Shown here piece after piece: positions 20,591 to 57,610 of a DNA stretch of 64,000 nt. The translations under genes were made by a program, and so were the position numbers. The stretch comes from Phoenix dactylifera. Taxonomy: Eukaryota > Streptophyta > Magnoliopsida > Arecales > Arecaceae. The first letter of the stretch is position 1. Every line of letters begins with the position of its first letter. The notes below the pieces were generated by a model. It worked only from the letters and a program-made list of their open reading frames with translations. It was not told the DNA's origin and made no database searches. Where the stretch lies: positions 22,756,899 to 22,820,898 of the forward strand of contig NC_052394.1 in NCBI RefSeq assembly GCF_009389715.1. Direction: 5' to 3'.

Positions 20591-22426
20591 TCACCAAAAA
20601 TCTTTACATGAACAGAACCCATCTTTAAAACAATGAAACCGATTCCGATCCCTCACTGTGATCTCACGATCATACACCTTAGAAATGAATTTTGTTGCTA
20701 AATGGCAGTCTGCACACACCCGCAGATTCTTAACAATCCAAATTGGTGTCCTCGGAGGAGTCTTCAGCAACATGAAAGCAATGGCCAACTTCTCACTATG
20801 CCAATGCAATGCATCCTCCTTATCCCCTTCATCAATGTCGAGCAGTACCTCTGAAGATATTGGCACATACCCTGCTCTCTTCAACTTCTTCCCAATCTCC
20901 TCCACCATCTCATAGATCTCCTTAGACTGCAAATGTGATGTATCTCCGGCAATGAACTCGTAGATCTCACCATCTAGCTCCACCGAACTGCTTCCAGGCA
21001 CCTTCCTAATCCCACGCTTGCTCATCACCTTCCTGATCTCCCACTTCTTGTCCCACCGGCGTGTCGATGCATAGACATTAGATAACAATACATAATTCGA
21101 ACTGTTCATCGGATCCTCCTCAAGAAGTTGCTTATTGATGCTCTCGCCAAGCTCAAGCCTACCATGGATGCGACAAGCACTGACTAATGTCCTCCATATC
21201 ACCGGGTTTGGCTCGATTGGCATCGTTCGAACAAAATTCACTGCCCGCTCGACCATCCCTGCTCGGCTAAACAGATCCACCATACATCCATAGTGCTCAA
21301 TTTTGGGTTCGATGCCGAATTCTCTCCTCATCGAATCAAAATAGCGGCATCCTTCATCAACCATGCCAGCATGGCTGCATGCAGTGAGGACGCCGATAAA
21401 GGCTACATCATCGGGGGGCACGCCAGCATCCTTCATTGCCTCGAAGATGCAGACCGCTTCACTCCCACGGCTGTGCATTGCAAGCCCATCGATCACCGAC
21501 GTCCATGACACGATGCTTCTCTCCGGCATTCTCTCGAAGAGAGCCACCGCACCATCAATGTCCCCACATTTGGCAAGGGTGTCCACCAGAGCATTGCACA
21601 AAGGCAGACTCTTCGGTATGCTCTCCCTCTCGATGTAAGACCCGAGCCATCTTGCGAGCTCGAGAGCCCCCAAGTCAGCGCAGGCAGAGAGCACTGTGAT
21701 GATGGTGACATCGTCAGGACGGACTCTGCCGACCTGCATCTCCCGAAAGAGAGCCACGGCCTCGTTGGACAGGCCCGACCGGACATAGCCGGCGATCATA
21801 GCACTCCAGGTGACCGGGCTGGACCTCGGAATCCTGTCGAACACCTTGCGAGCAGAATCAAGGCTGGTGCTGGAGCCGGAGTACATGCGGATGAGGGTGT
21901 TCTGCACGTACGAATCATCGGCGAATCCAAATTTGACGGCCGAGGCATGGACCTGGGAACCGACACCATGGGCATGGGGGAGGCCAGCGCAGGCCTTGAG
22001 GAGAAAAGGGAATGTGAACTTGTTGGGGCGGCGGCGGCGGCGGAGCATGAGGGAGTAGTAAAAGATGGCTTCTTGCTTGGAGTCGGGGCGGTGGGACTCG
22101 GCGTGGGAGCGGATGACGGTGTTGAAGAGGAAGTCGTCGTATAGATGGGTGGCGGCACGGGGGGAGAAGAGGAGGGAGGTGGCGGCATCGACGGCGTCGA
22201 GGGAAGAGGCGGTGGAGGTGAATTTGGTGAGAACGAGAGGGTTGGCTTGGAGGCCGGACTTGAGGAGGAAGGCCTGGGCTTGGAGGAGTTCGGGGAGAGA
22301 CTCGCAGCCTTGGAGCAAGGCCAGGCACGTCTGTTCAGCCGCTCGTCCTCTGGCAGCCGTGCGTACCAGAGGAGGGAGGCTTTTGAAATGCCTTGCCGAG
22401 GGAAACACCATATTCCTCAAGTCCAT
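20591..22426 (-). CDS. DYW-class pentatricopeptide repeat protein (organellar RNA editing factor)
   Basis: An intronless frame of 611 aa starts at the ATG at 22424-22426. After an N-terminal, probably organelle-targeting segment come PLS-type PPR repeats from about residue 100 to 420, with typical cores such as VTWSAMIAGYVRSGLSNEAV and VSWTSVIDGLAMHSRGSEAV. E/E+ motifs follow, including VPGSSSVELDGEIYEFIAGD. The DYW domain carries the cytidine-deaminase signature HSE (543-545) with CADC (571-574), and the protein ends FCSCKDFW. Members recognise specific cytidines in chloroplast or mitochondrial transcripts and convert them to uridine. The terminal tripeptide is DFW instead of DYW, a known natural variant. 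The gene is tail-to-tail with the TRM gene, with about 200 bp between stop codons. The target site and organelle cannot be read from the sequence. Confidence 0.93.
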   Translation of the reverse strand: MDLRNMVFPSARHFKSLPPLVRTAARGRAAEQTCLALLQGCESLPELLQAQAFLLKSGLQANPLVLTKFTSTASSLDAVDAATSLLFSPRAATHLYDDFLFNTVIRSHAESHRPDSKQEAIFYYSLMLRRRRRPNKFTFPFLLKACAGLPHAHGVGSQVHASAVKFGFADDSYVQNTLIRMYSGSSTSLDSARKVFDRIPRSSPVTWSAMIAGYVRSGLSNEAVALFREMQVGRVRPDDVTIITVLSACADLGALELARWLGSYIERESIPKSLPLCNALVDTLAKCGDIDGAVALFERMPERSIVSWTSVIDGLAMHSRGSEAVCIFEAMKDAGVPPDDVAFIGVLTACSHAGMVDEGCRYFDSMRREFGIEPKIEHYGCMVDLFSRAGMVERAVNFVRTMPIEPNPVIWRTLVSACRIHGRLELGESINKQLLEEDPMNSSNYVLLSNVYASTRRWDKKWEIRKVMSKRGIRKVPGSSSVELDGEIYEFIAGDTSHLQSKEIYEMVEEIGKKLKRAGYVPISSEVLLDIDEGDKEDALHWHSEKLAIAFMLLKTPPRTPIWIVKNLRVCADCHLATKFISKVYDREITVRDRNRFHCFKDGFCSCKDFW

Positions 22427-23547
22427 CGCCAGGCCAACAACAACATTTGAACTACCGCTGCACCCTGCTATATGGATGGTGTCATTGACCGTTCATTGAT
22501 TGGCAACATGCAGAAATTGATACAATCTCACTTCTTAATAATCAGCACATTATGATGGAACAAGTTTGTATGTTCCTAGCATGGAAATACACAAACAAAA
22601 ATCTGGTGTTTACTGCAGAATAAACTATGGTAAACCTCAAAAAATATTTCTTCAAGTGCGAGCTTTCTACCAGCAAATCTACAGGCAAAGATGATGATAC
22701 AGCCTGTAAATTTTGGGACAATCTTGCAATTGCAATAGCAGAACATGGTCTAATTTTCCTGCTGCTTCAAAGAGAGGCATGAGATTGGAATGGTAGAGCA
22801 ATCTTTCCCTTAAATGATATCAGAACTTTCGGAATGAATTTTTGACTTAAAGGCACCAAAGAAAACTGAAAAAATCACAACCAGTCTTGATAACAAACCT
22901 TATCGCATCAAATGACAATAATTATGAAAAGAATGAATGATGTATAACTTGACATCAATTTTGTGTATCTTCACACCCCCGTCGCAGGCCTAAAGTCTAA
23001 ATCTGAACAACAATGTTACAGAGAAAGAAGGGTAACACCCTTCAACATGTAATTGCTCTTCAATAATATCGAAACTTTGGTTGGGACAATAGCCAAGTAA
23101 TATACAAATTTATAAAAGAGAAATAAGCCCACAGTATTAGTGCCCCAAATGCTTGATAATTTCCATTTCCCTCTCGACATGAATATTTGCATACGTACGG
23201 AAGCAAAAAAATCAAATCATATACAAGCCTCCGCCAAAACTGAGGGAGCAGGAATGAAGGAATACAGTGGATTCAGATTGTTAGATACAGAGGCTGCAGA
23301 TGCGAGCCAAATGCTGTCAGTGCCCAGGGATGAAAAGGCTCCTATCTCAGATCATCTCTTCCAGCTTTACAAGAGGATGCATACATCCCAGGCCAAAAAG
23401 AATTGTAACGATGTGCTTTTTGCCGGTGCCTGCAAGCTTTCAAAAAGACAGCACTCCCACCAGATGCCAACAAAAGAATGAATCACACACCAATGCAAAA
23501 GTCAGGCATATTGCAATGAATGTTAACCAAAATCTCCCTAGCTAATA
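22427..23547. other. spacer between the PPR and O-fucosyltransferase genes
   Basis: Both neighbours are on the minus strand, so this stretch holds the 3' UTR of the O-fucosyltransferase and the promoter of the PPR gene. The open frame at 23140-23481 (+) has no family motif, and antisense UTR is the simplest reading. Confidence 0.5.
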
Positions 23548-45507: not shown

Positions 45508-45580
45508 GCCCGTCTAGCTCAGTCGGTAGAGCGCAAGGCTCTTAACCTTGTGGTCGTGGGTTCGAGCCCCACGGTGGGCG
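45508..45580 (+). tRNA. tRNA-Lys (anticodon CTT)
   Basis: The 73-nt cloverleaf has acceptor stem GCCCGTC paired with GGTGGGC, with G as discriminator. D-arm TAGCTCAGTCGGTAGAGC contains the A box, and anticodon stem CAAGG/CCTTG encloses loop CTCTTAA (anticodon CTT at 45541-45543). The T-arm GGGTTCGAGCCC holds the B box. No intron is present and CCA is not encoded. It is transcribed away from ALG5, whose start codon is 99 bp upstream on the other strand. Confidence 0.97.
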
Positions 45581-50616: not shown

Positions 50617-53600
50617 TTAATTAAAGATTCCTCTGGCTGCTCTTCTGAACATGTCATTCACCTGTAGAAAGAAAGGAGTAGGTCAGTGGCATCTCTCTCT
50701 CTCTCTCTCTCTCTAGTTTCTTTAAAAGTTATCTCAAAATATCTGGATCATAAAATGAAGAGGCATTTAATAAAAGACTTGACAATCTACCTGTTTGCAA
50801 GAGAGGCCTATCTTCTCCAAATCAGAGAGCTGTAATCATCATTAATTTATATTTTCAGCACCAGCTTCAAGTCATGCGTTTCCATCTAACTTTTAAGGGT
50901 TTAGATTAGCTTACTGATTTCAAAGGTCTGGGTGTGTGCTCCCGCAGCTCGAGGATGTATTCCGCTCTTTTTTGACCAATACCCTGGTGATAGAGTATCC
51001 AGAATTAGCCTTTGCATATGATGAATTGGTTCTTCTTGATATATGATTAACAAACATCTCTTATTACCTTTAACTGCATAAGCTCCTCCCTGAGTTTGTA
51101 GAAAGCAGGAGAATTTCATACCAAGTCAGTTAACAATTTCGAATATGGTATACCATTAATGCACACAAAAACAAAATTAATCCTTCATTCCCCACTTCAA
51201 AAAGTTACTTTTTGAATGCAAACATATGCTAGAAGTTTAATATACAAAATAATTACAGAACAATATTCAACTTGACATTTGTAATAATCCTTAATAAGCA
51301 GGAGAATTTCATACCAAGTCAGTTAACAATTTCGAATATGGTATACCATTAATGCACACAAAAACAAAATTAATCCTTCATTCCCCACTTCAAAAAGTTA
51401 CTTTTTGAATGCAAACATATCCTAGAAGTTTAATATACAAAATAATTACAGAACAATATTCAACTTGACATTTGTAATAAGACAGCATATAGCATGTTAA
51501 GGAAAAATACTACAGCATATCTGAGTTGTACATGTGTCAAACTTGAATGTTGTTTTACAGTTTGAGGTCCTTCCTGAATGATAAGAACATGATAACATGC
51601 TCATTGAAACTCGAGAGAAAACAATTTTCTTCATTTCCAAAACAAATAGTATAAACATCACTACAATCTGTAATTCGTGGCAAAACTTTTTCGTTGGCAC
51701 TCGAGAGATCTCCATGATCCAAAGTATAATGACCTCATACCAGAGTTTAATAATTTCAATAATGTAGACTAACAAGCTTAAGAGAGAATTAGCACCATCA
51801 GTTGAACTGTAGATGCTTACATAAAGTTCTTGATTTCCACCAAGACTCTGTATCTACCAAAATCACTCCATTATCTGGTAATTAATGTTCTGCTCAAATA
51901 TGTATTATCACATCTGTGTTCAAATCATACTGGATGGAAGGGATATTCTAACATGTTCCATTTCATTATTCATTTCTTTCTTTCTCTTCAATCTTGCTTT
52001 AAGGCGTAGGTTAAACAGAATGTAAACACAAAGGAGAAACAGAATATGAGAGAAGAAAATTCACCAGAAATCGACGATAAATAAGATACAGAAGATAGAA
52101 TAGAAGATATGGAAAATAGATACAATTTCCAAGCTTCCCAACATCACTATCATGGATGCTCTCAAATCTGCTAAAGATAAACAAATATAATCATCACTTG
52201 TTGTTGTCTTTTGCTTTTCTGCTATTTATATCTTTCACCTGATTGATGGGCTTAAGTTGAATGAACCCATTCTAACATTATAGGTTGATTTTGTCCCTGT
52301 GAACCTAGGATTCCTAATCCCTCATAGTCACCCAAACATAGAGAAGAAAGTAACAGACCCAATCTTGCTTTGACTGATTAATGGATTCAACAAGTTCCAG
52401 ATCAAAAACCATCAGTAACATTGAAACCCAATAATACTTCAATAATTACTTAATATTTTCACCAAGGAAGTTAATCTCCAAAAACATTTGCAAGCATTTT
52501 AGTCCAAACTTTTGATACGAACCAACCTCCTCTTACAAAATCCATATTATATTTTCCTAAAGGAAAAAAAAGTCTATGCTATTTAGGTCATATTATAACT
52601 TTTCCAGAAATATAATAGATATCTTTAAATTTCATATTAATCACATTATGCAGTTCTTAATTCCTTTTATCATGCTTCTACATAATCACCACTAAACTCT
52701 ATACTAAACAGGAACTAGCAACTTTCATGGTCGAAGAATATAATACCACAAACAATTCGTCGATCAGAAATTACTTCAGAATGCAGATAGAAGGAAGCAT
52801 GCAATGACAAATTTGCAAGAACTTTCCAGATGATGTAATCACATTGGGAGAGCAAAACTTACTTGCTAGCAATATTCAAGAATGCAAGATATTCTTGAAG
52901 AAGAGACTCCTGTGAATAGAAATGGCCTCATCAGTAACATAAAACGTGACTGCCAACTAAAGGATGCAATTAAGTATCTAGGCAAACCTTCAAGTTAGAG
53001 CTCAGTGCATTGAATTTGTCAAGAGGGGTGCCAAAAATTCCAACTTCATCCTTCTCACAAGCTGATTTTGGAGTTTTTGGGTCTAACAAAATGAGACAAA
53101 CACGATCATCGGATGATAGATGCTTGACTGGTCCTATGTTGGATGAAATTGGAGACAGAACTTTTCTAGGAGAATTCTGCAATTCTCTGATCCTTTCAGT
53201 GGTTGCTGGTGATCCCACATTATTTATAGAAGGAAGATGTAAATTCTCCTCGTTAAAAGGGGTTCCTGCACAAATAATGACATAAAAAACAACAACCTAG
53301 ATCTAAGTTCCTCATTACAAACTAATAAATTTATATGACGTTACTGAATTTGACAGAACTAGATGATACCAGGTAGATCGAATGTCCTGAAAAACTTAGC
53401 ATCATTGGTACTCTTCTCTCTCTTATCATCATTGGCTCCATTGAGGGACAATGGTACAGCCTACAAAAGAGTTTCACAATGAAATTTTAAATTTATATGT
53501 TGTCTCTAACAAGACTTAAGATTTAAAACTTTACCTTAGATGGCTCTAACCGTTCGCCGTCATCTTGAGTTGCCATATATGTGTCAGAGTTCTCATATGC

Positions 53601-56030
53601 GTGAAGCGATGAACAATAATTTAGCAGACCATCATCATGTTCTTTAGAATAGCTAGCTCCGCATGAGTGTAAATTCTATTAAAAAATTCAGGAAAGAAAT
53701 GATCATAATTCAAGGTACACCAAGGGAGAATTTACATTCACATATGATACACATTTCCATTTTTTTTTTCAAGTAAGAATGTATAACGACAAACCTCAGA
53801 TGTCTTTTCTTGATCCCTGTCGAGCAAAGCATGTGTACAACCTTGACAGATCTCATCCTTTAAAACGCATGAAGAGCTGTCAAGCCTGATGTCATGCTGG
53901 ACTACTTCATCTACTTCAAATGGACCTATTTTCTGGTTAAGAAACATATATATCAAATATAACATAAAAAGGAAAAACTGAAGTCTGAAGCGCATGAAGC
54001 ATACTTCATAAGGGACCAAACTTACTTGCTTCAAGAGTGATGCATCATTTGCAGCAAGAACACTTGAAAATATGTTTCTCTGATGCAAAAATGAATGTAA
54101 ATTAGTGAGAGCATTCATGTCTGTGAATAATGCGTCATCTGGTTGATGATGAGCATATACTTTCTTGGTAGTTGAAATAGGAGCCCCTGAATCAAATAGC
54201 TTCCTGTGAACAACACACCAAGTAAAACAAGACATACTGTAAGCAAATAGAGAGCATAAGAAAAGAAACTAGTAGGTAGATAAAAAGACTGAAAGAGAGA
54301 CTGACCTATCAGTAGTCTTTACTTTCGCCGAAGACCGAACTGATCCTGGTTGCTTTAGATAGCGAATAGAGGTTGGAGTTTTGCCCAAAAACGGAGAACA
54401 AGAGCCATTCATTCTTTGAATTCTCTTGTTCTTGCCTTTAGATTCAAGCCAGGCTCGAAGCTTTGCCTCCATATCAACTTTCACCTTTGGAGTCTCCTTT
54501 TTGTTGGCAGAACCCACATAGTTTACAATCTGGCGAGAGCGAGCAGCCAAGCTGACGGTGTGGACAGCTTCTTGGTACGACGCCGGATTCTGCACCAAAA
54601 GATCCAGTAAAGCTTCAAGTGCACGTTGAAACAAAGCCATCAAAAAAGAATTCTAGCATAATATCTAAAATTCCTACGAGACAAGCGATCATCAGAGCAT
54701 GACTCGTCCCTCCCAGTGAATCCTGCAGTATCCTTGTCAATTTGCTGTCTCGGTAGGGAATCCGTGGCTCGTTGTTGTTGAGAGCATATATGACGTTCGA
54801 TAGAGCAAATAAAGACTGATTAATCTTTGCACTCTCTTGTAGGCGGATTCCTTCATTGCAGGTTCTTCTGTTATCTTCATTACCTATAGAAGATTTAAAA
54901 CGAAAATGTAAACAATAAAAATGCCGCTTGAGCATTAATTTCAGTAATCTAAAAAAATGGAAACAAAAGGCTCTCAAGAAGGCAAATACCTGCCAAATCT
55001 ATGAGATTAAGCTTCCCCTTAACAGCACCGTTCGTAACAGCGATGGCAAGCACTGCATGGCTTCTGCTAGAAACATCATTAAGACCTGTGTGTGCTACTT
55101 TTCTCCTTTGGACACCGGTAGAAAAGACATCACAGAACTCATCCATCGAGTGCACGGGGGCCTTAAAATCATCGAAAAAAAGTAAGAACAAGAAAATTAA
55201 TCAATTTTCAACTCAAAAAAAGGTGGACGGCTAGCTACGCGGCTGGCTGGAAGACCTTACCCAAGAAAGTCCCTTCATTTGAAGCCTTCCCTCCTTGTCA
55301 TCGAGAGTCATGATCTCCTTCGCCTTAGGCTCTAACAAATCATAACACCGTTCCATGTAAATTTCATAGTACGCGATCTCCACGGAGCCTTGTGCGTTCT
55401 TGCACGAAGAGAGAATGGTTGACATGGCCAAGGGAATTAGGCCGGGTTCGTCCTTCGTCCCCTGCTTCGTCAACCAATCGAGTCATCATACCTCTAATAG
55501 AGAACAGAAGTGGAGAATGTCGTGGTATCAGGACTCGTATTTCTCGAATCAACTCACCTCCATTGTGTAGGTCTTTCCACTTCCTGTTGCCCCATAAGCA
55601 AAGACAGTAGCATGTAATCCTTGAAAGATTCCCGGGATCACAGTACTGACCTCCCTCTGGAAGATATGACCCACGCGGTCCTCTTGCCCAAAGAATGAAT
55701 CTAAATTGTAGCACTCGTTTCGGCTGCATGCGGAGATCAAGATCAGAACTGGCAACCCCAGAACAAAGGAAAATGTAATTAACTTGCAAACTCTACAATT
55801 GAACAGGGGTGTCACCTTGTCCATTGGTCTTTGATGTGAACGGTGACTTCCTTACCGATACGATTATCCAGGTCGAGCAGAGTGATGCATGGGATCGGGC
55901 TCTTCTCCTTGGACGTGATCTCCGAAGGAAGAAAAGGACGCACTCGCAGCACAACTCTGACTTGGGATGAGAACGTATTTGACGAGACGTGTCCCATGGA
56001 AGATTGCGAATTTGCTGCTGGATTTGCCAT
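50617..56030 (-). CDS. kinesin-10 family motor, Kid/KIF22-like chromokinesin
   Basis: The sixteen exons in transcript order are 56030-55816, 55723-55558, 55461-55261, 55161-54990, 54883-54678, 54589-54306, 54203-54026, 53932-53795, 53675-53535, 53460-53370, 53265-52988, 52909-52863, 51089-51068, 50983-50915, 50829-50791 and 50661-50617. They encode 763 aa and all phases close. The N-terminal motor has [10 protein letters not shown], the P-loop GATGSGKT (116-123), switch I NDVSSRSH (222-229), switch II DLAGNE (from 249) and [13 protein letters not shown] Lys-rich neck ([18 protein letters not shown]) and a Ser-rich stalk follow. The C-terminus (about 700-763) is a helix-hairpin-helix DNA-binding tail, with [20 protein letters not shown] and [14 protein letters not shown], as in animal Kid. 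The expected role is chromosome-arm movement in mitosis or meiosis. Exon 13 is only 22 nt. Confidence 0.93.
50692..50714. repeat. (CT)n microsatellite in the last kinesin intron
   Basis: About eleven TC units occupy part of the 129-nt intron 50662-50790; on the transcript strand it is a GA run. Confidence 0.9.
51104..51480. repeat. 184-bp near-identical tandem duplication in kinesin intron 12
   Basis: 51104-51287 and 51297-51480 match over 184 bp with a single difference (ATATGCTAG versus ATATCCTAG) and are separated by 9 bp. The copies sit immediately upstream, in transcript sense, of the 22-nt exon 13 and stop 14 bp short of its splice acceptor. Confidence 0.95.
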
Positions 56031-56110
56031 CGCATAGAGAGATCTAGAGGAAGAAGAGAAGCAGGGAGAACCAGAGGTGCGGGAGAAGGGGGCCGGGGTC
56101 GCAGGGTGGT

Positions 56111-56121
56111 TGACCGTTGGA
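56111..56121 (-). promoter_or_regulatory. mitosis-specific activator (MSA) element
   Basis: On the minus strand this reads TCCAACGGTCA, a full match to the plant MSA consensus YCYAACGGYYA bound by three-repeat MYB factors. It lies about 80 nt upstream of the kinesin start codon, consistent with G2/M-phase expression of this gene class. Confidence 0.75.
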
Positions 56122-56127
56122 TCTTGA

Positions 56128-56138
56128 GGACCGTTGGC
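56128..56138 (-). promoter_or_regulatory. second MSA-core site
   Basis: On the minus strand GCCAACGGTCC keeps the AACGG core of the MSA motif but departs from the consensus at both outer positions. It lies 6 bp beyond the perfect site, and paired sites are common in mitotic gene promoters. Confidence 0.55.
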
Positions 56139-56402
56139 GGAGAGCGGTTTGAATTTGAACTAGGTCACGGTCTGGTGGACCGCGTGTCAGAATAGGGGCG
56201 AAGGGCAGGCAGGGGATACCACAGAGCGGGCAAAACGGGAAACTCGTGAAGTCGTAAAATGGATAAGGCCACGTAGAGGGTTTCGCATCGGTTGCGGTAC
56301 GCCGAGCTAAATTTAAATTTCGAACTTCAAATTCTCACCGCAGAAAAAGGTAAAAGCTAGTGGATGGATCCGTCAGCTTTAATACAAGCACCATCAAATC
56401 TA

Positions 56403-57247
56403 GGGGTGGTTCTATATACACCCCCCAGACACCCCCCAAAAATTAAAAAAAAATTAAATACTCTCTACACCCCCCCCCATTTGCTAAGGACACCCCTAAA
56501 AAATTAAAAATTCCTAAATTACCCCCCACCCTCCCCACCCCCTCACCTAAATTGCTCTCTACACCCCCCAAACCCCCCCCACCCCGCTCTTCCCCTCCAA
56601 AACACCTCGCCAACGCCCAAAACCCCCCCGTTCCCCCTTCTCCCTCTCGTCGCCGGCATTCTCCCGATCTCCGACCACCTCGCCGGCTTCTCCCGGAACC
56701 ACCTCGCCGGCTTCTCCCGAAATTTTTTTTTTTCACGGTTCGTGCTCCGTTCGGCACTGGATCGCCGAACAAAAGGCTTCTGTTCGGCTGAACAGTGCCG
56801 GACAGAAGCCTTCTGTTCGGCACTGTGCAGCCGAACAGATCTGTTCGGTTGAGGGTTGCCGAACAGAAGGCTTCTGTTCGGCACTGTTCAGCCGAACAGA
56901 AGCCTTTTGTTCGGCGATCCAGTGCCGAACGGAGCACGAACCGTGAAAAAAAAAAATTTCGGGAGAAGCCGGCGAGGTGGTTCCGGAAGAAGCCGGCGAG
57001 GTGGTCGGAGATCGGGAGAATGCCGGCGACGAGAGGGAGAAGGGGGAACGGGGGAGGAGGGGTTTAAGGGGGGTTTGAGGGGTGTTTTTTTTTTTCTTTT
57101 CAAAACGAAACGGAGGAGGAGGAAGGGGGTGTATGAGAAAATTTCAAGGGCAATATGGTAATTACACTAAAGGTTAGTTTGGGTATTTTCTTTTTGGTTT
57201 TTGGGGGGTGTCCTGAGCAATAGGGGGGGTGTATATAGAACTACCCC
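56403..57247. mobile_element. 845-bp TIR transposon with a 422-bp internal hairpin
   Basis: The ends are GGGGTGGTTCTATATACACC and, from the other side, GGGGTAGTTCTATATACACC. Both flanks read AAATCTA (56396-56402 and 57248-57254), extendable to 8 bp with G, which would fit a hAT-type 8-bp target duplication. Inside, 56629-57050 is an almost perfect palindrome centred on AGATCT at 56837-56842: 211-bp arms align without net gaps, with only a few mismatches outside a short stretch beside the centre. The arms contain repeated TGTTCGGC/GCCGAACA words and a tandem pair of CCACCTCGCCGGCTTCTCCC. No transposase is encoded. The superfamily is inference. Confidence 0.85.
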
Positions 57248-57610
57248 AAATCTAGGCTCCATCTGCTTTACGTAATTTGTTTATGTAATCAATGGAGGGA
57301 ATCAAACAGTGTTTGGTCCCTTGATATTCTCTGTCTGAAATGTATTTAATAATCTTAAAATTGGATAATTTATTAATCTTAAGTCAAAAGGAAATGACAA
57401 ATTCTCGGATATGCAAATACAAGCATGCAACCGATTATGATTTCTCATTAATCATCTCGCCGCCTTTTTAACAAAACAGAATAATTCAAGTATAATGGTA
57501 GAATATACATGAATCGAATTCATGAGATAGCTATTGGCTCTGGGGGCTGCATGACACCTATAGAGTTCGGTTTAGCATTTCTTAGGTTAAAATTTCAGAT
57601 TTGTTAAAAT

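What the first reader, a model, noticed from the sequence alone, without database searches (positions are those of the whole stretch)
56403..57247. Transposon carrying a 422-bp near-perfect hairpin
The palindrome 56629-57050 has 211-bp arms that stay in register with no net gap around the AGATCT centre, inside a TIR element with 7-8-bp target duplications. Transcripts from either strand would fold into a long dsRNA stem, a natural substrate for Dicer-like enzymes. Arm symmetry this good implies recent formation, gene conversion between arms, or selection.
Basis: partly seen in the sequence, partly recalled or inferred. Interest (0 to 1): 0.7.

Follow-up and report, generated by a model that had tools for sequence, protein, structure and literature searches.

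The report
Young plant jumping gene with hairpin
A small, recently multiplied jumping gene, probably of date palm, contains a 430-base mirror-image hairpin that seems to have grown in two steps, each end of the element copying itself onto the other, before it spread to well over a hundred places.

Summary
Window 56404-57246 is an 843-bp non-autonomous Mutator-type (MULE) element with a 9-bp (not 7-8-bp) target duplication, CAAATCTAG. It holds a spacer-less palindrome (56625-57054; arms 215 nt, 8 mismatches). The host is most likely date palm. The family is large and young: 278 exact palindrome centres, 186 copies of this form's own junction, 1234 near-exact element ends (reversed-pattern controls 0). 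The probable autonomous partner is a 7394-bp MULE with transposase and plant-mobile-domain genes; 105 transposase exons at 98-100% identity were scored. Comparing parents, an intermediate form (A) and the window form (B) shows how the palindrome arose. First, right-end sequence was copied, inverted, into the left half (A, ~120-bp arms). Then the left arm was copied into the right half, 96 new bases replacing 122 native ones (B, 215-bp arms). B then amplified; sampled copies lie ~0.7% from their consensus. Arms mutate no slower than the rest, so selection for a hairpin is not supported. A weak signal (4 mirror-symmetric double changes, P=0.006) hints at continuing arm-to-arm conversion, but assembly polishing could mimic it. 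Dicer processing was not testable. New variant of a known kind.

The parts
56395..56403 (.). left copy of the 9-bp target-site duplication CAAATCTAG
   Evidence: sequence; canonical ends fixed from 85 TIR pairs
56404..57246 (+). whole element: non-autonomous Mutator (MULE) element, form B, 843 bp; has a 10-bp deletion in its left TIR relative to the B consensus
56404..56453 (+). left terminal inverted repeat (about 60 bp in the consensus, shortened here by the deletion; inner limit approximate)
56625..56720 (+). outer left arm, derived from the LEFT end of the autonomous parent; template of copy event 2
   Evidence: alignment with parent ends
56718..56720 (.). CGA: microhomology at the event-1 junction between left-end and inverted right-end sequence
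56721..56839 (+). inner left arm: inverted copy of the RIGHT end of the parent (event 1), with GTTCGGC-type repeats
56840..56958 (-). inner right arm: right-end sequence of the parent; axis of the palindrome (AGATCT) between 56839 and 56840
56959..57054 (-). outer right arm: inverted copy of the left arm (event 2); form A and the parents have 122 other bases here
57045..57069 (+). event-2 outer junction (GGAACGGGGGAGGAGGGGTTTAAGG), found 186 times genome-wide with at most 1 mismatch
57187..57246 (-). right terminal inverted repeat (inner limit approximate)
57247..57255 (.). right copy of the 9-bp target-site duplication CAAATCTAG

Best explanation
This is a high-copy, recently amplified non-autonomous MULE whose long palindrome was built by two successive end-to-end copying events in opposite directions and then spread by a MULE transposase supplied in trans. 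The autonomous parent already carries short TIRs and inverted arrays of GTTCGGC-type repeats near both ends. Event 1: right-end sequence was copied in inverted orientation into the left half, joined at a 3-bp CGA microhomology, with the interior lost; this gave form A (arms about 120 bp). Event 2: synthesis starting in the right arm ran along the left arm past the end of homology and rejoined in a C/G-run, so that 96 new bases replaced 122 native ones; this gave form B (arms 215 bp), which multiplied. Shown by sequence: the forms, junctions, donor sides, order A before B, copy numbers, TSDs. Inferred: that the events were failed or ectopic gap repair (or hairpin template switching), and that the listed transposase moves the element.
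For: Exact 9-bp TSDs at fixed ends in 69 of 85 TIR pairs. Elements with the same ends carry a MULE transposase (PF10551 6e-27; FAR1 1e-6) and a plant mobile domain gene (PF10536 6e-57); the longest is 7394 bp with TSD CTAGGTCTG on both sides. 105 transposase exons at 98-100% identity were scored out of 418 first-look candidates, 100 of the 105 without stops. Form A and five parent right ends share a 122-bp right segment, which form B replaces by 96 bases of inverted left-arm sequence. Of 77 distinct 550-1000-bp copies, 25 are A, 47 are B (40 with the exact outer junction, 7 with a private change in it) and 5 are neither. The left arm of A and B carries right-end markers (CACGGTTC; AACAAAAGGC) where three parent left ends read differently. 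Genome counts: B junction 186, native right junction 411, event-1 junction 488. In the B consensus the arms have 7 mismatches of 215, none more than 38 nt from the axis, so the copied tract is perfect.
Against: No movement or transposase activity was observed, and no empty allele of the window site is in the assembly. Direction of event 1 rests on three parental left ends and five right ends; one of the five right ends (L092) lacks the AACAAAAGGC marker, and array units are interchangeable, so the innermost part of the arm cannot be assigned. The transposase gene appears split between frames and I did not model introns. The few extra bases at the event-2 outer junction are unexplained filler or slippage.
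Confidence: 0.82

Rival explanations
1. The palindrome is kept symmetric by natural selection because its hairpin RNA makes useful small RNAs (miRNA-like or siRNA locus).
For: Very stable predicted fold; position roughly 0.8 kb upstream of a kinesin P-loop codon on the minus strand; reviews link plant MITE hairpins to small RNAs (PMC10004981, search listing only).
Against: In 44 B copies arm substitution rates (0.0070, 0.0069) are not below subterminal and TIR rates (0.0066, 0.0059); with homopolymers masked the arms change faster (0.0073, 0.0056 versus 0.0031, 45 copies). Copies with one-sided 26-bp arm deletions or 33-bp insertions exist. No Rfam family matched in the element.
Confidence: 0.06
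2. The palindrome arose in one step, by simple internal deletion fusing the parent's inverted subterminal arrays.
For: Parents have inverted inner arrays (in L089 a 311-bp left stretch matches the right end at 84%), and another derivative (L085) has a ~172-bp-arm foldback of about 87% identity.
Against: Form A's left arm carries right-end sequence from outside the array, and form B's right arm carries left-end sequence; neither can come from deletion alone.
Confidence: 0.07
3. Symmetry is maintained now by continuing gene conversion between the arms of individual copies.
For: 4 mirror-symmetric double substitutions in 45 B copies; re-pairing of arms gives mean 0.85, P=0.006; registers slid by 1-8 give 0-1. 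Without masking, 5 observed against 1.40, P=0.007 (44 copies).
Against: Few events, two of them the same change; most arm substitutions (62 left and 50 right in all) are one-sided. The published date palm assembly was polished with 2x100-bp reads (PMC6794320 passages), which could hardly tell the arms apart and could copy a change across.
Confidence: 0.25
4. Assembly artefact.
For: Long palindromes are hard to assemble.
Against: 186 places with the form-B junction and independent TSDs; the axis-near arm differences are kept in the consensus of 44 copies.
Confidence: 0.01

Closest known systems
Plant Mutator-like elements (MULEs) and their non-autonomous derivatives
   Same: 9-bp TSD, MULE transposase in full-length relatives, ~60-bp TIRs, internal-deletion derivatives
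   Different: about half of the element is a spacer-less palindrome made of sequence from both ends of the parent
Galileo (P superfamily, Drosophila) with extended or recombinant TIRs (PMC3573991: passages and the Discussion; PMC4168063: passages)
   Same: the authors propose repair of one TIR from the other with a tract running past the TIR, lengthening the inverted repeat: the same logic as event 2
   Different: other superfamily and host, 7-8-bp TSD; the parts that I read describe no two-step history in opposite directions ending in a spacer-less palindrome that then amplified
Tm1 Mutator/Foldback elements of root-knot nematodes (PMC3169594, abstract and outline)
   Same: Mutator-type transposase, 9-bp TSDs, composite inverted repeats, MITE-like members
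   Different: a section heading there says low copy without evidence of recent transposition; here hundreds of near-identical copies
MULEs with multiple long TIRs (PMC3310237, abstract and Discussion)
   Same: MULE ends duplicated and amplified; slippage, recombination, nesting or acquisition discussed as causes
   Different: there mostly tandem TIRs; here inverted copying from one end onto the other
Mu killer of maize (PMC3440606, abstract and passages)
   Same: an inverted-duplication derivative of an autonomous Mutator element, proposed to give hairpin RNA that silences the parent
   Different: a single locus with a ~1.3-kb mudrA inverted duplication; here dispersed copies without transposase sequence, silencing untested. 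That paper itself found short antisense transcripts, unable to form large hairpins, in silencing plants, so the hairpin model is debated even there

Membership tests
Mutator (MULE) superfamily | 9-bp target-site duplication | tested here: met
   69 of 85 TIR pairs exact, window copy included
Mutator (MULE) superfamily | MULE-type transposase in full-length elements with the same ends | tested here: met
   PF10551 6e-27, FAR1 1e-6 in L091 and L092; both ends and TSD found for the 7394-bp element
Mutator (MULE) superfamily | transposase shown to act on these ends | not testable with these tools
   needs an excision assay
MITE | short, non-coding, high copy, homogeneous | tested here: met
   about 840-880 bp (long for a MITE), 278 exact centres, sampled B copies ~0.7% from consensus; no transposase frame in the window element
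Foldback-type elements | long inverted repeats with internal repeats filling much of the element | tested here: met
   215-bp arms with GTTCGGC-type repeats, 430 of 843 bp
Galileo (P superfamily) | 7-8-bp TSD and P-type transposase | tested here: not met
   9-bp TSD and MULE domain; the likeness is of mechanism only
Mu killer-like silencing hairpin | hairpin RNA giving siRNAs against the autonomous element | not testable with these tools
   only sequence identity tested: 214 to 278 of 410 21-mers of the window or consensus palindrome occur exactly in each of three parents
MIRNA or other Rfam RNA family | match above the family's gathering score | tested here: not met
   the only match in the window was a tRNA at 45508-45580

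The most novel reading that the evidence does not exclude
The two-way copying joined left-end and right-end sequence of the autonomous MULE in one hairpin stem. Any transcript through one of the 186 or so form-B copies could then yield siRNAs against both subterminal regions of the parent, making form B a dispersed, self-spreading counterpart of Mu killer that rises with, and eventually silences, its own parent. More generally, palindromes in DNA transposons may ratchet outward by alternating arm-to-arm copying.
Probability: 0.15. Interest if true: 0.7.

Novelty: new variant of a known kind. Interest (0 to 1): 0.45.

Why it matters
How transposons acquire long inverted repeats, and how hairpin loci that might feed RNA silencing are born, is usually argued from end products. 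Here putative parents, an intermediate and the product coexist in one genome with little later mutation, so donor side, direction, junctions and order can be read off. The same family has many near-identical open transposase exons, which makes it a candidate for a still-mobile MULE in date palm, useful for insertion-polymorphism studies and for testing whether hairpin derivatives silence their parent.

Tried and rejected
Rejected: a hAT reading (suggested by 7-8-bp TSDs), because the TSD is 9 bp and the partner is a MULE. Single-step deletion origin, because of cross-end markers. Selection on the arms. A CHH-context C-to-T excess in the arms, as a footprint of small-RNA-directed methylation: event rate 0.0104 versus 0.0045 outside, but only 21 distinct changes at 90 sites versus 13 at 94; I do not claim it. 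A 327/562 symmetric change lies at a homopolymer edge and was dropped by masking. Empty-site search for the window copy: each flank matched only the window locus, no empty allele held. Rfam: nothing in the element.

Rows dropped: of 88 TIR pairs 85 were distinct for the TSD count, among them one spurious pair across two neighbouring copies in L034, and 77 were kept for alignment after a size limit (550-1000 bp) and removal of duplicates. One search split these into 25 A, 44 B and 8 other; one search found 3 of the 8 to be B with altered junctions, 47 B in all. The masked substitution test used 45 of the 47: L084 was removed by hand (arm deleted) and L072 fell out by a string rule. Copies came from best-scoring hits (L001-L008), an exact 26-nt centre, or TIR hits, taken in list order from the first contigs plus one cluster on C626, so the sample is not random and divergence may lean low. 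The two whole-genome DNA searches with the element scored only 40 of 919 and 40 of 897 candidates.

Full report
Host. The window lies in G000, 773,078,369 bases in 2391 contigs. The size matches the published date palm (Phoenix dactylifera) long-read assembly of 772.3 Mb (PMC6794320: start of abstract, passages), and contig C2390 is 715,001 bp with an rbcL-like stretch, which is the date palm mitochondrial length as I recall it. I treat the host as date palm, inferred and not proved.

Observation. The palindrome is real: arms 56625-56839 and 56840-57054, 215 nt, no spacer, with 8 mismatches at 9, 12-16, 38 and 147 nt from the axis and abrupt loss of symmetry beyond 215. With the element cut out, the longest comparable palindrome in the window has 16-nt arms, and 20 shuffles gave 7-14. 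As RNA it folds at -460 kcal/mol against a mean of -168 for 100 shuffles.

Ends and superfamily. Of 85 distinct TIR pairs, 69 have an identical 9-bp duplication outside the same ends, GGGT... and ...ACCC. For the window copy this gives element 56404-57246 and TSD CAAATCTAG on both sides.

Copy number. The genome holds 278 exact copies of an asymmetric 26-nt centre, 1234 TIR ends with at most one mismatch and 186 copies of the outer junction peculiar to the window form. The native right junction occurs 411 times and the event-1 junction 488 times. Since form B can carry the latter in both arms, form A should number roughly 488 minus twice 186, about 116 (arithmetic, not a count). All five reversed-pattern controls were 0.

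Autonomous partner. Among 20 stretches that I chose from TIR hits without the exact centre, L089 (5357 bp) and L091 (5385 bp) have both ends and encode a 394-aa frame; in L091 it matches MULE (PF10551, 6.3e-27) and FAR1 (PF03101, 1.4e-6). L092 with the adjoining L095 gives a 7394-bp element flanked by CTAGGTCTG on both sides. It carries the same transposase frame, a plant mobile domain gene in the opposite orientation (PF10536, 6.2e-57) and a frame with only a weak otubain-like hint (Peptidase_C65, E 0.036, below the curated cut-off). The transposase frame was scored in 105 places out of 418 first-look candidates, full length at 98-100% identity, 100 of 105 without a stop. Activity is inferred, not shown.

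How the palindrome was made. Aligning 77 distinct 550-1000-bp copies showed two main forms. Form A (25 copies) has in the outer right half a 122-bp segment that is also at the right end of L089, L091, L092, L083 and L079. Form B (47 copies, the window's form) has instead 96 bases, nearly all of them the reverse complement of the left arm. The inner switch point lies exactly where arm homology ends in form A (TTTCG); the outer one lies in a C/G-run with a few extra bases. The left arm of both forms is itself a composite. Its outer part matches the parent's left end. From a CGA shared by both donors inward it matches the inverted right end (CGAAATTTT..CACGGTTCGTGCTCCG, AACAAAAGGC), where the left ends of L089, L091 and L092/L095 read differently (CCTCCAGTGCTCCG, AACAGAACCC). 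CACGGTTC is in all five right ends and none of the three left ends; AACAAAAGGC is in four of the five right ends. So sequence went right to left first, then left to right. Form A keeps the parental right end, which fixes the order A before B. Nine of 25 A copies share the right-TIR state of B and of the parents (CCTGAGCAATAG); the rest differ, most with CCTTAGC, so B most likely came from the older A state. Of the 47 B copies, 40 have the identical outer junction and 7 differ from it by a private change, which points to a single origin.

Mechanism. Inferred from established biology: excision of a DNA transposon leaves a double-strand gap; a repairing end that invades the opposite, inverted end copies past the homology and is then joined at short homology. 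The Galileo authors propose the same for TIR lengthening (PMC3573991 Discussion). Template switching within an extruded hairpin is an alternative route to the same junctions. In L073 the axis palindrome is repeated about four times, so the axis itself is prone to slippage.

Selection or conversion? In 44 B copies 248 substitutions give about 0.7% mean distance to consensus. Rates are 0.0070 and 0.0069 in the arms against 0.0066 subterminal and 0.0059 in TIRs. With homopolymers masked (45 copies) they are 0.0073 and 0.0056 against 0.0031. So the arms are not conserved. Four mirror-symmetric double substitutions remain after masking (re-pairing mean 0.85, P=0.006; slid registers 0-1); unmasked, 5 against 1.40, P=0.007. 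This fits occasional arm-to-arm conversion after spreading, but shared ancestry of variants and Pilon polishing with 2x100-bp reads are live alternatives.

Function. Between 214 and 278 of 410 21-mers of the palindrome (window or consensus) occur exactly in each of three parents, and both the left-derived and the right-derived part contribute. A transcript could thus supply siRNAs against both parental ends, as first proposed for Mu killer; in the paper that I consulted (PMC3440606 abstract and passages) the silencing plants had short antisense transcripts instead of the long hairpin. No expression or small-RNA data were available here, and I give this reading 0.15. The window copy lies upstream of a minus-strand kinesin-like gene (motor-domain exon in 54615-54998; P-loop at about 55593).

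Known or new. My ten searches of the held open-access library listed no paper that, by title and start of abstract, describes this date palm family or a MULE palindrome built in two opposite copy steps; I opened six papers in part. Subscription papers and repeat databases were not searched. Components and mechanism have precedents, so I file it as a new variant of a known kind.

Noticed in passing
L092:1000-8022 with L095 (G000:C4:21263009-21270402): 7394-bp candidate autonomous MULE with transposase and plant-mobile-domain genes on opposite strands and a weak otubain-like frame; 100 of 105 scored transposase exons in the genome lack stops.
   Followed up: partly
L034:3722-9414 (G000:C626): Five family copies within 6 kb: two stand head to tail with the same 9-bp duplication ATGGAGAAA, and one appears inserted in another's right TIR.
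   Followed up: partly
L073 (G000:C4:18807664-18809089): Form-B copy whose axis palindrome GCCGAACAGATCTGTTCGGC is repeated about four times (+44 bp), suggesting slippage at the hairpin tip.
   Followed up: partly
L085:500-1677: 1178-bp derivative with a different foldback (arms about 172 bp, ~87%), so palindromic derivatives may have arisen more than once in the family.
   Followed up: partly
L076:6069, L090:6193, L093:6158: Derivatives with the same ends whose middle is a G-rich GGAGG/GGTGG array instead of the palindrome.
   Followed up: no
L079:251-1189: Strongly repetitive stretch inside a family element, open in several frames on both strands.
   Followed up: no
51103-51480: 193-bp tandem duplication, 2.0 copies at 99% matches.
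   Followed up: no
54615-56164: Kinesin-like gene on the minus strand (PF00225 3.7e-24 in 54615-54998), whose 5' end faces the element; the element may lie in its promoter.
   Followed up: partly
20591-22492: Long PPR-DYW frame, 633 aa, minus strand (PPR_2 1.2e-37, DYW_deaminase 1e-36).
   Followed up: no
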